Origin: Citrus sinensis | Taxonomy: Eukaryota; Streptophyta; Magnoliopsida; Sapindales; Rutaceae | Direction: 5' to 3' | Length of the DNA: 64,000 nt | Assembly (NCBI RefSeq): GCF_022201045.2 | Contig: NC_068558.1 | Coordinates: forward strand, 6,477,501 to 6,541,500 | Part shown: positions 7,371-57,924 of the stretch, piece after piece | Position numbering within the stretch: the stretch's first letter is position 1 | Layout: each line of letters begins with the position of its first letter | The notes under the pieces: generated by a model | Seen by the model: the letters and a program-made list of their open reading frames with translations, nothing else | The model's database searches: none | What the model was told of the DNA's origin: nothing | Made by a program: the position numbers and the translations under genes

Positions 7371-7630
7371 AACTTTATTCTCTTAGACCACCCTGAAAGA
7401 GAAAAAAAGATGGGATCACAAACAACCCTTTCCCTTTCTCATCATACTATACAATCCCTCCCATTTCTTTGATCCAATTCTGTTCTTCTTGTCATCAAAA
7501 TCTAAGTAATTGAAATCAGTAATAAAACTTTAAAGCAAAGGAATAAAGTAAAGTAAAACGAAAAAAAGGAGCCGCACCCGTGTTTACGACAACCAAAATG
7601 AATCATTTACTCACACCAGCATCATCATCA

Positions 7631-13930: not shown

Positions 13931-14544
13931 GGCACAAGATAATGTGTGAAGATGTTTATTCCACGTTTTCTATATTTCATCTCTTAGTTTGTTTTTATTA
14001 AATATCCACATAACTTTAAAACAATCAAAATAAAAAAAATGCACTTTGTGTAAAAACAAACACTAATTTTAACTTCTTTATGTTCTAATTAATGATTTTA
14101 TCTTCATTATGTATAACAACATTTGTTTCATGGATTTAGTGATTTGTAGGGGGTGGCGGGATTTGGTGATTCGTTGAGACTAGTGAGATTTAATATTTTG
14201 TTCAGACTGTTGTTGGTTTGTCAAATTTATTGATAGGTTTGAGGGTAATTTAGTCTAAATTTTAAATGTTTGATAAGATATGATAAAAAAATATTAAGGT
14301 GGTTAATTTGAAAAATCTTAAAAAATTTTGGACTACTTATGTAAATTTTATAAGCACCTGTGCAAAAACCACATTAAAGGTTGCATAATGTCACTGTCGA
14401 TGCCCGTTTCCCCCGTTACACTATCTTGTCTTTCTATTAAATTTAAAGTTAGGGGTGGCCGTATTGAATATAAATCCATTCCCTTTACCCAATTTTTCCG
14501 GGAAATTTACACTAATAACCATAAAAATTTTAGTTTTTTTCATC

Positions 14545-14991
14545 TTAACCCCTCAAACAAATTTCTATCAACATTAGCCATAAAAGAACCGTTGAGACCA
14601 AATTACCCCTCTCTCTCATCTCCCTTTCCTCTTCCTCTTGCCTTCTTCTCTCCAGTTCTCTACTAATTTTAGCATCCACCTCTTTCTTCTTCTTCTCTCT
14701 CCTATAATCCTCGTAATCGTTCGGTCTAGCGGGGTCGTGCTCCTCGATTACGGTCGAAGTGACGTCGACCAATGCCGGTTGCGGCAGCGCTACCACGTCG
14801 TCGGGGTAAGGTGCGATTGCAGGTGAGGAATGGGGTCTAGTCGGGAGAGAATTTTGGATGGTTTTGGGTTTGGATTGGGGCTTGAGGATGGTTTGTGGTG
14901 GCGCGAAAATTGACCAGACAATGGTGGTCGTGTTGGTGGGTTTGTCCTCATCGGAGGGTGGAGGTAGGTCTCCGTACAGCCCGCCTAGCAT
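14545..14991 (-). pseudogene. Captured N-terminal fragment of DRT111 / splicing factor 45 homologue
   Basis: From the ATG at 14,991 an open frame of 148 codons begins MLGGLYGDLPPPSDEDKP and contains FAPPQTIL, PALVDVTSTVIEE, DPARPNDYEDYRREKKKK and a charged RRQEEEEREMRERGN helix. These are N-terminal features of plant DRT111 (SPF45-type splicing and DNA-damage-tolerance factor). The homology stops near 14,602. The last 18 codons come from the element's inverted repeat, so the product would be chimeric. The G-patch and RRM domains of the real protein are absent. Compared with the Arabidopsis protein as I remember it, about 15 residues are missing in-frame before FAPPQ. The parent 5' UTR seems to be included (about 14,992-15,180). 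The reading frame is open, but expression is unknown. Confidence 0.8.
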
Positions 14992-15202
14992 TTCGCAACA
15001 TGGCTTTTGATGGAAAATCCCGGGGAATTTGAATTCCGAAATTGGATTTTGGAGAATTAAAAAGCTAATTTTGTTTTGTTGTTTGGGTTGTCGGATGAGA
15101 TTCGATCTGAGGTAGAAGAAGATATTACATACGAATAAGAAGAGACGAACAAAGACGAAAGGACTGGCGAAAACAAACAAATACTGAGGTAGAAGAAGGC
15201 AA

Positions 15203-15330
15203 TCTGTCGCACGAAGCTTGGTGCGACAGGCTGCCTGTCGCACCAAAGCATGGTGCGACAGGTGCCTGTCGCACCAAAACATGGTGCGACAGGGTGCCTG
15301 TCGCACCAAGACTTGGGCCGTCGCACCAAG
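15203..15330. repeat. Tandem array of CCTGTCGCACC palindromes
   Basis: Four consecutive units of about 30 bp each have the form CCTGTCGCACCA, a short centre, TGGTGCGACAGG (12-bp arms). The outermost units are imperfect. The array lies between the captured 5' UTR and the right inverted repeat of the Pack-MULE. A related single palindrome sits 1.3 kb away, outside the element, at 13,896-13,923. Confidence 0.85.
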
Positions 15331-15923
15331 CTTCTTTTCGTTTGTAAAGAAGGGTAATTTGGGGAGAAAAGCGTATGTTTGGCTAATGTTGATAGAAAAA
15401 AGTTGAGAGGGTTAATTGTGAAAATAGTAAAAATTTTATGGTTATTTTCGTAAATTTCCCAATTTTTCCCCAGTTCCCTCGACAAGCCCATGTGACTTTA
15501 GCCGTCGATATCCAAGTTGATTAGAGACGAGTGACTGGCGAGAGCGGCAAGTATGAGCATAAAAGCATTGATTTTTCAACTAAAAGAAAATCTATGGGCT
15601 AATTTCACAATTTCTCATGTAAAATGATAATTTTTTAAATATCTCCTAAATTATCATAAACTTCAATTTTATTTTTTTTTAGAAAAACAAAAAAAAAATT
15701 TACCAATTCACTCCTATTTTTTATTTTTTAAATAAAATAAAATTATGAAGAGAATTCTGAAAGCTGTAAATTTATGAAGAGAATAATCCGAAATTTTCCT
15801 GCATTTCTGCAAATGCAGCCCGATTAACTCTAATGTTAGGTGATTCTTTGTGCTCGAGTTTGCTTTGATAGCTGGATTTAATTATAACTGGGGCTTCAAA
15901 CACCAAAAGCTTGAAAGCCACGC

Positions 15924-53600: not shown

Positions 53601-54728
53601 CTTTAAATGTGAGAAGCAAGATGTTTCTTTTTTTCTTTTTCTTTTTTGAATCACTGATATATATTACGCTATTTATATTTAAACAGACATATATAAGGAT
53701 CACCTAGATCAAGTTCTATTGTCAAGTAACCCAAATTTCTATTTTCAAAAGTATTGGAGGGATATTTGCTCCACCCACAAACTGGGGGGAGATATCTATC
53801 TCTATCCAATTTTAATGTAAACTAATTAATATATAGATGTATAGGTTAAGAAAATATGCAGATAAATATCTATAGATGAATAAGCTACATAGTGCCACAG
53901 GAAAAAAAATTACCTGTAAATATGTGAAAACATGCTGAGACGATTGGCTAGAGCCAATAGTATTTTAAAATGCAATAACTCATTCAGCTAAATGATTGCT
54001 GATCAAAGTCATAGCGTGAGAATTACTCTGCAAACTTCGGCGAGAAATGGAATGGTCACATAGTCATGCTTTTAACCTCCATTGCTTCAAGAGAGAGATG
54101 TCAAAATCTACTGAACATAAAAGAAATGGAGTTTGACTTATATGATACCCAACAGATTTTATAAAATCAATAAAAATCAACTTCACAATTAAAATAATCG
54201 AAGGAAAAACAACAGAGCATGATCATTATTCTATCTTTGCACCACGTAAACTATAATGAATGGGCTGTACAAGAAGAGACATACGCAACCAAGACTCCAA
54301 GAGAAGATGCTCAAACATTGACAGAAAACTGAAATAAATAGTTCCAAAATAAACTTGAATCAGCTAAGCCAGGTTTCATCAAATCCAATTTCAATGAAAT
54401 TATCTAGGAAAAATATCCACTGACCACCTGATTTTTCACACTTTATCAAAAATACACAAATTTTTTTTTTTTTGGCAATAATCTACTTAAAGTTTACAAA
54501 GTTATCATTGTTCCACTTCCGTCATAACTTCCTTAGAATATTGCTGACATCAAAGGGTTAAAATTGTCATTTGAAGTAAACACACTAAAACGATGACGGA
54601 TTCCTCTTACAAAAACGGCCACCAACTGCTGGTGCGTTGCTGGTGCCCTAAATGCACAGATCGAACAAAAAAAAAATAGAGATAAAAACACAAAACATAC
54701 TCAAATCAAAATTTCAAGAACCCAAATC

Positions 54729-54905
54729 ATGTCATGGATAATATTTGAAGGATTACTGTCGTTGGGCATCATAGCAGCAATGATAACAATTGCGGGAAAT
54801 GCGCAGTATCACATCCACAAAGCCGCTCACGAATGCTCGAAGCACGTCGGTAATGATATGTGGGCCGTCGCGATGGAGAGAAGGGACAAGAAGATTATGG
54901 AATAG
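54729..54905 (+). pseudogene. Captured NDUFA1 (complex I MWFE subunit) copy
   Basis: ATG at 54,729 opens a 58-codon frame: MSWIIFEGLLSLGIIAAMIT, then IAGNAQYHIHKAAHECSKH, VGNDMWAVAMERRDKKIME. A single hydrophobic segment near the N-terminus, then the QYHIHK and VAMERRDKK blocks, match plant NDUFA1, a 65-residue one-membrane-span subunit of mitochondrial complex I. The frame stops at TAG (54,903); the next seven codons LFNASSN and a second TAG at 54,927 stay in frame. The first stop is probably a CAG-to-TAG change in a 66-codon parent. The whole coding region, apparently with some 5' UTR, lies between the inverted repeats of a Mutator-like element, so it is a captured copy, not the working gene. 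It is too short for most ORF filters. Confidence 0.82.
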
Positions 54906-55015
54906 CTCTTCAATGCTTCCTCCAATTAGATGTTGTCTCGCCTGTCTAGAAGCTTTACTTATGAAGATTCAAGCATATGCAATATGTTCATTTTCTTATC
55001 TTTTGTATGTGAATC

Positions 55016-56700
55016 TTTTTTTTTTTTTTGAAAAGAAAGTATACCTTTCAATATATTAACTGGAAAGAATAAACATGATGTCTGTTGGAAATTCATCCAA
55101 CCAAATTACAGTTTCGTTCCTTTGCAGGGCTAACTTAGCCAAAGCATGAGCTATACCATTCCAAGTTCTAAGGACATGCTGAGCTTTGAAATTATGAAAA
55201 GTCTTCTGCTTTTCCAGAATTTCAGAGATCACCAAAAAAACTTCAGACATATTGCTTGACTTCTTGTTAACGAGCTCAACAACTTCTAAAGAGTCAGATT
55301 CAACAACTCCATTAGTAACTCCAATGCTTGATGCAACCTGCAAACCCCACTCCATGGCTGCAGCTTCAGCCATTACTACACTACCAAAATACTTAGAGGT
55401 CTTAACAACAGCAGCTTTACACTTGTCATCCGAGTCTCTAATCACCACCCCAAGGCCTGTCACTTATTTCTCAGCATCCACTGCAGCATCCACATTAATT
55501 TTTAGCCAGTCTCTTGGGGGAGGGCACCACTGTTTCTGCTCCACTGCCCTCTGACTTGCAACATAATTTGTTTCAGGCTGTTTGACTTTCCTAAACGACT
55601 CTATAACAGATTCTGCCCGAGCCACTGCTCTGGTTGAATTCTCTTTTTTGCCCTCAAACAACCATTTGTTTCTCGCATTCCAAATAGCCCAAAGTAATGC
55701 AGCCACTAAGGCCCCTTCTATATTGGCATTCAGTTGAGGCAAGACTTGTAATAACCCAATTATGTCCTGGTTGTGCTCCCTTTGTGGATCCACTGTTATT
55801 TGAGAAGCTTTCCAAATCTTCTTTGCCATTTTGCACTCTATCAGAGCATGAGAAGTGGATTCCATCTTGCAGCAGCAAATTTGGCAAGTTGACTCCTGAA
55901 GAATTCTTCTCTTCCATAAGTTTCCAGCAGTTGGCAAAAGGTCATGGGCTGCTCTCCACAAGAAAATTTTAATCTTTTCTGGTATTGAAAGTTTCCAGAT
56001 AACATTCCATTGACACCTGGTTGAGCAACTTGGCTTGTCTGGGAACTTCATCTGCATAGCCACTTGGTAGCCGCTTTTGACAGAATATTGGCCTCTTTTA
56101 TCATAGTGCCATATCAGTTGATCATCATGTGGCCTTCTCGGCAAAAGGATTTGAGAGATAGCTTTTGCATCTTCTGCTCTGAAGTGATCACATATCAGTT
56201 TTTCTTTCCAATGTTGCTCGTTGTCAATTAACTCTGCCACTGTTGTGTCTGGAGCCATTGTTGGGGCTGAAATTGGCCTGAAGGTTGAGGGTCTGGGAAT
56301 CCAATTACTTTTGTACACCTTTACATTTTCCCCATTGCCAATTCTCCACCTAGACCCTTGTTGGATCACTTGCCTCCCCCACAACACACTTCTCCAAATA
56401 AAAGATGGTTTTGACCCCAATCTTGCATTCATAAACCCCTCGTGCTTAAAGTACCTAGCTTTCAAGACTTTTGCCACCAGTGAGTTTGGAGACTGCATAA
56501 TTCTCCACCCTTGTTTAGCAACTAAAGCTTGATTGAAACTTGATAAGTCTCGGAACCCCAATCCACCCCTCACCTTTGCATAACTCATTCTCTCCCATTT
56601 CGCCCAGTGAATACCTTTCTTCTGCCGATCAGTTCCCCACCAGAATTTGGCCACTGCTTTTTGGATATCCTCACAAATCCCTATGGGGATTTTAAAAACA
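55016..56700 (-). mobile_element. 5'-truncated L1-type LINE, well preserved
   Basis: The minus strand encodes the C-terminal part of a plant LINE ORF2. From about 56,654 it reads MAKFWWGTDRQKKGIHWAKW and RGGLGFRDL (the region after the reverse transcriptase), then zf-RVT (YSVKSGYQVA, WKLSIPEKIKIFLWRAAHDL, CQICCCKMESTSHALIEC), then RNase H (LKINVDAAVD, GVVIRDS, AEAAAMEWGLQVA, ESDSLEVVELV, RTWNGIAHALAKLA), ending at 55,056. Only one in-frame stop (55,464-55,466) interrupts about 530 codons. A long T run at 55,017-55,030 on the plus strand is the poly-A tail. The endonuclease and reverse transcriptase are lost by 5' truncation. It sits inside the Pack-MULE, so it is younger than that element. 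The decayed LINE at 10,880-12,060 is a relative. Confidence 0.88.
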
Positions 56701-57155
56701 ATCTAGGCAGGGAAGAAGGAGGTGTTCTTCTTAACATTTGTTATCTAATTTATTTATTTATTATATATTTTAAAGATTTTTTATAATTATTTATTTTTAA
56801 GATTTTTTTATAATTATTTATTTTATATGCAACTTCTATTATCTATTTATTTATTATTATTTTAAGATTTTTATTTGATAGTTAATTATTGTTTTTAAGA
56901 TTTTTTTTATAATTACCCCTTTGTAACTAAAAGTCTTGTTTTTAACTTGGATAAAATAGTTATTTTAAGTTTTATGGATAAAATAGTCATTTAATGAGTA
57001 TTCCATTAAATACCCTAACGGTGTTATAACATGAGTGGAGTGGTGATACACCTTGTAAACTTCAGGTGAATTGTTGCAAAAAAAAAAAAAAATTATATAT
57101 TTTTGATAAAGTGCGAAAAATCAGGTGGTCGTGTGGATATTGTTCCAATTATCTA

Positions 57156-57924
57156 AACCTGAGAAACCTTAAGTTTGTGCCTTCAGGAAACTTAAGAATC
57201 AAATGACGGTGATCAATTATCCGTGCTTTGAGTTCTAACCTTTGTAACTCTATTTACCTTCATCCAAGTACAAATTTAACACATCAGCAAATCACTCAAA
57301 TATTAAAAAGCAAATGGCATGAATACTCGACATCGAATCCCAGTTTCACAAAATCAACCAAATGTAAAATTTTGTGCAATACGGAACTACGTTAATAAGC
57401 ATCAGCAAATCAGATTTAGATCTAAAGAAACTGTAAGATACGAACCACACATTGTTGAACACTGAGCTGAAACTTCGATAAAATACGAACTTCTTGTCCG
57501 TACACATCTGATATCCGATTAGCTGAAGATAACAAATTTCACAGAGAAATGAATTCATTGAAGAGGATTTTAAATGTAACTAAAAACGAGGCGGTCGAAT
57601 ACAGCAGCAATGCATATCAAATGTAAAAGTGTAGGTGCCGATCGACCAAAATAAAGTGTGATGAAATATTCAATACATTGGTAAAATAATAAAATTTCCT
57701 CAAGAATAGAAAATTATGTGCATAAAGGAGGTAAACACTCATAAACCACAATTATGACAAGTAGATTGCATGTTATTTTCTTTTTTATCTTTCTTCATAG
57801 AGTGGGGATGCAAGAGAAACCTATAGCACTCCATTCACAGAGCATGTTAGGAGACCTCCATCAGTTGGTTGCTGGACACGGTATAGATTCAGGCATCAAC
57901 AATGGATCCCAAAAAAATAAAATT
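57156..57924. other. Intergenic, no gene recognised
   Basis: AT-rich spacer right of the Pack-MULE. Short frames only. Confidence 0.4.

What the first reader, a model, noticed from the sequence alone, without database searches (positions are those of the whole stretch)
54398..57155. Second Pack-MULE: captured complete NDUFA1 coding region, later split by a LINE
A 9-bp duplication AATTATCTA and >120-bp inverted repeats enclose a nearly whole gene for a tiny mitochondrial complex I subunit. The copy is short enough to be missed by ORF filters. The LINE inside gives a relative date: capture, then transposition, then LINE insertion. The coding copy shows no intron, so if the parent has introns in the coding region, an RNA intermediate would be implied.
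Basis: partly seen in the sequence, partly recalled or inferred. Interest (0 to 1): 0.7.

Follow-up and report, generated by a model that had tools for sequence, protein, structure and literature searches.

The report
Jumping gene carrying spliced host messages
A plant DNA transposon picked up a spliced, intron-free copy of a small mitochondrial gene, and close relatives of the same transposon hold spliced copies of other genes too, so these "DNA-only" elements seem to collect host messages by way of RNA.

Summary
A Mutator-like element (54407-57146, 9-bp TSD AATTATCTA, ~140-bp TIRs) carries an NDUFA1/MWFE copy (54729-54929) and a truncated LINE that lies in the captured 3'UTR, not in the coding part. 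Eleven elements found carry it.

Beyond the finding: the same backbone also carries spliced mitoribosomal mL60 (2 elements) and spliced metallothionein (2 elements), the latter starting at the predicted cap site. All 14 places found with the non-TIR backbone hold one of the three; one further broken end shows no cargo. A neighbouring MULE of another TIR subfamily carries spliced ABC-F pieces in scrambled order. In total: 4 donors, 6 of 6 spanned introns missing.

Best reading: recurrent capture of mRNA-derived cDNA, probably as filler during gap repair, followed by ordinary transposition. Capture of earlier retrocopies is the main rival. The window copy looks like a pseudogene (stop at codon 59 of 66).

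The parts
54398..54406 (.). left target-site duplication AATTATCTA
   Evidence: 9/9 match to the right copy
54407..57146 (+). whole Mutator-like element
54407..54546 (+). left terminal inverted repeat (about 140 bp)
54547..54727 (+). left non-TIR backbone, shared by NDUFA1, mL60 and metallothionein elements; cargo starts at its right edge
54728..55016 (+). NDUFA1 spliced cDNA cargo (starts 1 bp before ATG, runs into the 3'UTR, cut by the LINE)
54729..54929 (+). NDUFA1 coding copy, 66 original codons plus stop; TAG at 54903-54905 ends the frame after 58 aa
54836..54837 (+). exon 1/exon 2 join (134-bp donor intron absent)
54948..54949 (+). exon 2/exon 3 join in the 3'UTR (2690-bp donor intron absent); a 42-bp deletion shared with L034-L036 lies just 3' of it
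55017..56695 (-). 5'-truncated LINE (poly-T at its left end on the + strand), seen only in this copy; replaces about 107 bp
56696..57006 (+). right backbone
57007..57146 (-). right terminal inverted repeat
57147..57155 (.). right target-site duplication AATTATCTA

Best explanation
This is a non-autonomous Mutator-like DNA transposon whose cargo is a DNA copy of a spliced NDUFA1 mRNA. SHOWN: TIRs, 9-bp TSDs, amplification to 11 NDUFA1 elements, absence of two donor introns at the exon edges; in the same backbone, two further unrelated spliced cargoes (mitoribosomal mL60, metallothionein) joined within a few tens of bp of the same left edge; in a neighbouring MULE subfamily, a fourth spliced cargo (ABC-F) made of two mRNA pieces in scrambled order joined at 2 bp of shared sequence. 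INFERRED: reverse transcriptase from resident retroelements made cDNA fragments of host mRNAs, and these were stitched into the element as filler, by microhomology or template switching, while the gap left at a MULE excision site was repaired; element transposase then spread the product by normal transposition with 9-bp TSDs. The window copy moved, then received a truncated LINE. It probably makes no functional protein.
For: RNA step: the NDUFA1 134-bp intron is missing in 10 of 10 elements that span its site (9 with no gap at the join, L043 with a 1-nt gap beside it), and the 2690-bp intron in 11 of 11; in the latter, 4 of 11 (WIN, L034-L036) have a deletion beginning beside the join and L044 keeps only about 9 bases of exon 2. 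mL60 1514-bp intron (GTATCC...TTGCAG) missing in 2 of 2. Metallothionein introns of 99 and 217 bp missing in L052 and L054. ABC-F 630-bp intron missing, the exact exon join found in the cargo. The metallothionein cargo starts at donor position 1258, 35 bp after the start of a TATAAATA box, as a full-length mRNA copy would. Recurrence: 14 of 14 places found with the non-TIR left backbone hold one of the three cDNAs, one of them (C4:1367741) only the NDUFA1 3' end. Left edges collinear. Filler-type capture rather than LINE-style retroposition: no poly(A) at the NDUFA1 (9 copies), mL60 or metallothionein 3' junctions; the ABC-F pieces are internal mRNA fragments in reverse order with a GG overlap; no free NDUFA1, mL60 or ABC-F retrocopy among the scored matches.
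Against: An intronless metallothionein copy without detectable TIRs exists at C6:9156982 (L060), so a captured older retrocopy is possible for that cargo. The NDUFA1 capture is not recent (UTR distance donor to copies 0.11-0.17), so poly(A) tracts could have been lost; L052 has an A-rich tract inside, though not at the end of, its cargo 3'UTR. L051 (C3:12536793) keeps the TIR and part of the left backbone (213 of 321 bp, 77%) but breaks off before the cargo edge and holds none of the four cargoes, so not every relative is known to carry cDNA. Sites of entry differ by up to some tens of bp, and the right edge of the metallothionein class lies further in. No reverse transcription or repair intermediate can be seen in sequence.
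Confidence: 0.6

Rival explanations
1. Two-step origin: LINE or LTR machinery first made ordinary retrocopies in the genome, and MULEs later captured those retrocopies at the DNA level by their normal route.
For: L060 is an intronless metallothionein copy with no detectable TIRs within the fetched 1.5 kb either side. A human retrogene (ARF6) nearly completely captured by a MER20 element is on record, with recurrent retroposition named there as an alternative (PMC8277862, passages seen).
Against: No free retrocopy of NDUFA1, mL60 or ABC-F among the scored matches (one search also has one 124-bp match at 72%, probably a paralogue). L060 shares about 8-10 A-rich bp beyond the mRNA 5' end with the MULE copies, weak evidence that it may be a broken MULE copy rather than a source. 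The ABC-F cargo has scrambled pieces. Each of the four identified cargoes would need its own retrocopy.
Confidence: 0.27
2. Direct retroposition (TPRT by a LINE) of mRNAs into MULE copies, which then amplified by transposition.
For: A LINE has inserted into one of these elements. 5' truncation of NDUFA1 and mL60 cargo is typical of TPRT. Left of the mL60 cargo the motif AAATCAA(A/G)ATTTC stands twice, though both copies are on the same side of the cargo.
Against: No poly(A) at 3' junctions and no duplication seen by eye on both sides of a cargo. Orientation differs between cargoes. ABC-F pieces lack the mRNA 3' end.
Confidence: 0.1
3. DNA-level capture of intron-less ancestral genes, with donors gaining introns afterwards.
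For: Only one donor gene per cargo is available in this genome for comparison.
Against: Six introns in four genes would all have to be gained after capture, with canonical GT-AG ends, exactly where the cargo is contiguous. The ABC-F cargo is 96-98% identical to its donor.
Confidence: 0.02
4. The window copy, or one of its sisters, is a working retrogene under selection.
For: Against a UTR-based neutral simulation, six copies show 1 new stop where 6.1 are expected (P 0.015) and somewhat more synonymous changes (45 against 35.8, P 0.052) (a first run with UTR columns that ran past the cargo end gave 7.1, P 0.006 and 34.8, P 0.033). L038 keeps the whole frame.
Against: Coding sites change no slower than UTR sites: 136 of 1182 against 97 of 1060. 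The window subfamily (4 copies) and L042 stop at codon 59; L037 has a stop and an 8-bp insertion; L043 and L036 have frame-breaking gaps; L039 has lost the ATG. The simulation assumes a star tree and a majority consensus that itself carries the stop at codon 59.
Confidence: 0.06

Closest known systems
Pack-MULEs (plant Mutator-like elements with captured gene fragments; PMC13317346, passages seen)
   Same: Long TIRs, 9-bp TSD, host gene sequence between the ends, multicopy spread, chimeric pieces.
   Different: Cargo is spliced mRNA sequence in all four cases whose donor introns could be tested here. The passages seen describe DNA-transposon capture as transduplication of gene fragments; the held text has no word beginning 'intron'.
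Pack-TIR elements of animals (PMC8277862, passages seen)
   Same: TIR elements duplicating host sequence by gap filling or template switching.
   Different: That study's methods discard intronless captures of multi-exon genes as retroduplicates, so this kind would have been filtered out; a related case named in the passages is a retrogene (ARF6) inside MER20.
LTR-retrotransposon gene capture by template switching (PMC13317346, passages seen)
   Same: Host RNA becomes part of a mobile element.
   Different: Here the carrier is a DNA transposon; no reverse transcriptase belongs to the element itself (the LINE is a later insertion in one copy).
LINE-made processed pseudogenes
   Same: Intronless copies, sometimes 5'-truncated.
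   Different: No poly(A) at the junctions and no cargo-specific TSD seen; copies are spread by a DNA transposon.

Membership tests
Mutator-like element (MULE) | 9-bp target-site duplication | tested here: met
   Read by eye from the ends printed. Of 11 NDUFA1 elements: 9/9 in WIN, L034, L037, L039 and L044 (L034 and L044 low complexity), 8/9 in L043, 7/9 in L038; not clear in L035 and L040/L041; one end lost in L036 and L042. L054 (MT cargo) 9/9.
Mutator-like element (MULE) | long terminal inverted repeats (over 100 bp) | tested here: met
   138 bp aligned at 79.7% in the window element.
Mutator-like element (MULE) | mobilised by a MURA-type transposase | not tested
Pack-MULE | host gene fragment between the TIRs, with a separate parental gene elsewhere | tested here: met
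   Donor C6:18214207 and on, intron-bearing, 66 aa MWFE protein.
Pack-MULE | capture at the DNA level, introns kept (recalled as the usual description) | tested here: not met
   6 of 6 donor introns spanned by four cargoes are absent.
Processed pseudogene (LINE type) | intronless | tested here: met
Processed pseudogene (LINE type) | poly(A) tract at the 3' end | tested here: not met
   No A-tract at the NDUFA1 3' junction in the 9 copies that keep it (WIN is cut by the LINE, L039 is altered there; L040+L041 counted once), nor at the mL60 or MT 3' ends; loss by age not excluded.
Processed pseudogene (LINE type) | target-site duplication around the copy | tested here: inconclusive
   None seen by eye in the flank alignments, but old, diverged flanks and no empty-backbone element to compare.

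The most novel reading that the evidence does not exclude
This genome's MULEs take host sequence mainly from mRNA: spliced transcripts (as cDNA, or RNA directly) serve as filler templates when MULE gaps are repaired, at a preferred internal edge, so that a DNA transposon acts as a recurrent carrier for short, spliced host messages.
Probability: 0.4. Interest if true: 0.8.

Novelty: new variant of a known kind. Interest (0 to 1): 0.62.

Why it matters
How MULEs acquire gene pieces is an open question (the abstract of PMC8277862, seen in the listing, says their origination mechanism remains perplexing). Spliced cargo from four donors shows that, in this genome, an RNA step is part of it. Because at least one published pipeline discards intronless captures (passage), the phenomenon could be commoner than reported. 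The ABC-F element, 96-98% identical to its donor and with a second copy at 99%, is recent enough that junctions, relatives and possibly polymorphic insertions could be read directly.

Tried and rejected
Selection on the captured frame: the stop-codon test leans towards constraint (P 0.015; P 0.006 in the first run), but coding sites change as fast as UTR sites and several copies are broken; treated as suggestive only.

Source of the left backbone, or of the stretch GGCCGCAACAGCGGCTGC right of the cargo: no donor gene found. Rfam match in 54300-57300 at gathering score: none.

L051, a relative with part of the left backbone, was checked for the four cargoes and holds none; its left end breaks off before the cargo edge.

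Literature: ten counted paper searches over the open-access library listed no paper that I could recognise, from titles, abstract starts and the passages seen, as a report of spliced cDNA cargo in plant MULEs. Subscription papers were not available, so this is not proof of absence. Of papers, only passages of PMC8277862, PMC13317346 and PMC4858842 were seen, plus search listings.

Empty site in a relative: not testable, as no plant relatives are held. Sizes of the cargo-free short relatives were read only from pairs of coordinates.

Full report
What is there. The window is G000:C3:6477501-6541500 of an unnamed 299.7-Mb, 11-contig genome; a flowering plant is inferred from its genes and elements. 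At 54407-57146 lies an element with TIRs that align over 138 bp at 79.7%, flanked by AATTATCTA on both sides. Inside are an NDUFA1/MWFE copy (PF15879, 2e-10) and a 5'-truncated LINE on the other strand (zf-RVT and RVT_3). The LINE lies in the captured 3'UTR; sister elements L034, L035 and L036 run through that place, with about 107 bp that the window copy has lost.

The parent gene. A search with the captured region found 19 matches, and a search with the 58-aa product found 14. They resolve into 11 transposon copies and one ordinary gene at C6:18214207 and on (L033). The spliced gene encodes a 66-aa protein (MWFE 4.5e-14). Its first intron (134 bp, GTGTGT...TTTCAG) lies in the coding part. 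Its second lies in the 3'UTR and is 2690 bp (GTACTT...ATGCAG; one search had placed its first base one position early). In the alignment the first intron is missing in 10 of 10 copies that span its site, 9 without a gap at the join and L043 with a 1-nt gap beside it. The second is missing in 11 of 11; four of those (window, L034-L036) have a shared 42-bp deletion that begins beside the join, and L044 keeps only about 9 bases of exon 2. The captured stretch starts at the ATG and ends at donor position 7418-7424 with no A-tract.

Copies. The 11 NDUFA1 elements are the window copy, L034-L039, L040+L041 (one element split by a large insertion), L042, L043 and L044. L044 keeps only the cDNA's 3' end; L036 has lost its left end and L042 its right end. 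TSDs, read by eye, are 9/9 in WIN, L034, L037, L039 and L044 (L034 and L044 in low-complexity sequence), 8/9 in L043, 7/9 in L038 and unclear in L035 and L040/L041. The nearest sisters, L034 and L035, are about 94% identical to the window copy over about 610 bp. All four members of the window subfamily (WIN, L034-L036) share the TAG at codon 59; L042 has a TAA at the same codon.

Other cargo in the same backbone. Some elements matched the left, non-TIR backbone but not NDUFA1. Reading them showed different contents at the same place. L049 and L050 carry a copy of a gene at C4:28489917-28491718 whose spliced product, 87 aa, matches At1g27435 and mL60 of the plant mitoribosome (1.9e-29 and 6.5e-29); a 1514-bp GT-AG intron is absent in both copies (L050 has one substitution beside the join). 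L052 and L054 carry, in antisense, a metallothionein (PF01439, 5.9e-13 for the L052 copy) from the gene at C8:28935007-28935559; introns of 99 and 217 bp are absent, although L054 has deletions in the coding part. The metallothionein cargo begins at donor position 1258, an A after TC, 35 bp after the start of a TATAAATA box, which is where an mRNA would be expected to begin.

How general in this lineage. The union gives 14 places with the left backbone: 10 hold NDUFA1 (one of them only the 3' end), 2 hold mL60 and 2 hold metallothionein, so 14 of 14. L036, which has lost the backbone, is the 11th NDUFA1 element. One more place, C3:12536793 (L051), matches the TIR and part of the backbone (213 of 321 bp, 77%), breaks off before the cargo edge, and holds none of the four cargoes. 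Backbone identity between cargo classes averages 70-78%. In a tree of 12 rows the mL60 and MT classes are each one well-supported group, while the NDUFA1 class is not resolved as a single clade (9% of bootstrap trees), so its history relative to the mL60 class is open. The first look of these searches has limited sensitivity, and only 40 of 588 candidates were scored, so more distant members with other cargo may exist. Twenty-two short places have paired TIR matches and look cargo-free, by coordinates alone except for L053, which was fetched.

A fourth case outside the lineage. Next to L035 sits a MULE of another TIR subfamily (L035:4956-6382; left TIR 73% to ours). Its cargo matches an ABC-type ATPase gene (ABC_tran 1.1e-6 for one piece, no Pfam hit for the other; the ABC-F label is recalled from the sequence) at C8:26930375-26932184, at 96-98%. 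Two exons separated by a 630-bp intron (GTTAGT...CACGCAG) are joined exactly, and a piece from nearer the 3' end of the same gene stands before them, joined through a shared GG. A second copy at C1:8715395 is 99% identical. Taken together, four donors and six spanned introns give six absences and no intron kept. I did not find an intron-bearing cargo, but only these four donors were resolved; a fifth element in the window (14490-15475) could not be tested.

Mechanism. Splicing of the cargo is shown; the route is inferred. Against simple LINE retroposition: no poly(A) at the junctions read (9 NDUFA1 copies, mL60, MT), no duplication seen on both sides of a cargo, both orientations, and internal, scrambled pieces in the ABC-F case. 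L052 does have an A-rich tract inside its 3'UTR. Filler capture of cDNA fragments during repair of a MULE excision gap accounts for these, and for repeated joining at nearly the same left edge. The chief rival is capture of existing retrocopies: an intronless metallothionein copy without TIRs exists (L060), though it shares about 8-10 A-rich bp beyond the mRNA 5' end with the MULE copies and may be a fragment of one.

Function and age. The window copy has a premature stop and no evidence of expression could be sought. A UTR-calibrated simulation gives fewer stops than expected (1 against 6.1, P 0.015) and slightly more synonymous changes (45 against 35.8, P 0.052), but coding change is no lower than UTR change (136 of 1182 sites against 97 of 1060) and several frames are broken. 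I regard the copies as pseudogenes carried by a transposon. UTR distance from donor to copies, corrected, is 0.11-0.17 (the window copy left out because the LINE cuts its UTR).

Comparison. By TIR and TSD this is a MULE; by content it is a Pack-MULE whose cargo went through RNA. A transposase for it was not sought. A published animal survey discards intronless captures by design (PMC8277862, passage), and passages of a 2026 review of plant gene capture describe DNA-transposon capture as transduplication of gene fragments (PMC13317346). Paper searches listed no paper recognisable as a report of a plant MULE with spliced cargo, within an open-access library only.

Noticed in passing
window 14490-15475: Another TIR element (81-nt arms, 78%) whose internal sequence resembles the start of an SPF45/DRT111-type protein (name recalled); 30 near-full-length matches at 95% or more, itself included, so a recent burst; possible donor C1:300717-300931.
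   Followed up: partly
L035:4956-6382 and G000:C1:8715395: Neighbouring MULE with scrambled, spliced ABC-F cargo 96-98% identical to its donor; sits directly against the left end of an NDUFA1 element.
   Followed up: yes
L060 (C6:9156982-9157260): Intronless metallothionein copy with an open frame, no TIRs found; either a free retrocopy or a broken MULE copy.
   Followed up: partly
L040/L041 (C2:1952700-1962100): An NDUFA1 element interrupted by roughly 9 kb of other sequence, not identified.
   Followed up: no
L034:4110-4139 (- strand): A conserved stretch GGCCGCAACAGCGGCTGCAAACAATCTAGG right of the cargo in NDUFA1 elements, with a counterpart in mL60 elements and no donor found; possibly an older captured piece.
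   Followed up: partly
places, e.g. C2:14220987-14221468: Twenty-two short elements (about 270-720 bp by coordinates) with paired TIR matches of the same family and no visible cargo, like MITEs.
   Followed up: no
L051 (C3:12536793-12537004): A broken left end of a related element that keeps TIR and part of the backbone but no cargo and no right TIR found.
   Followed up: partly
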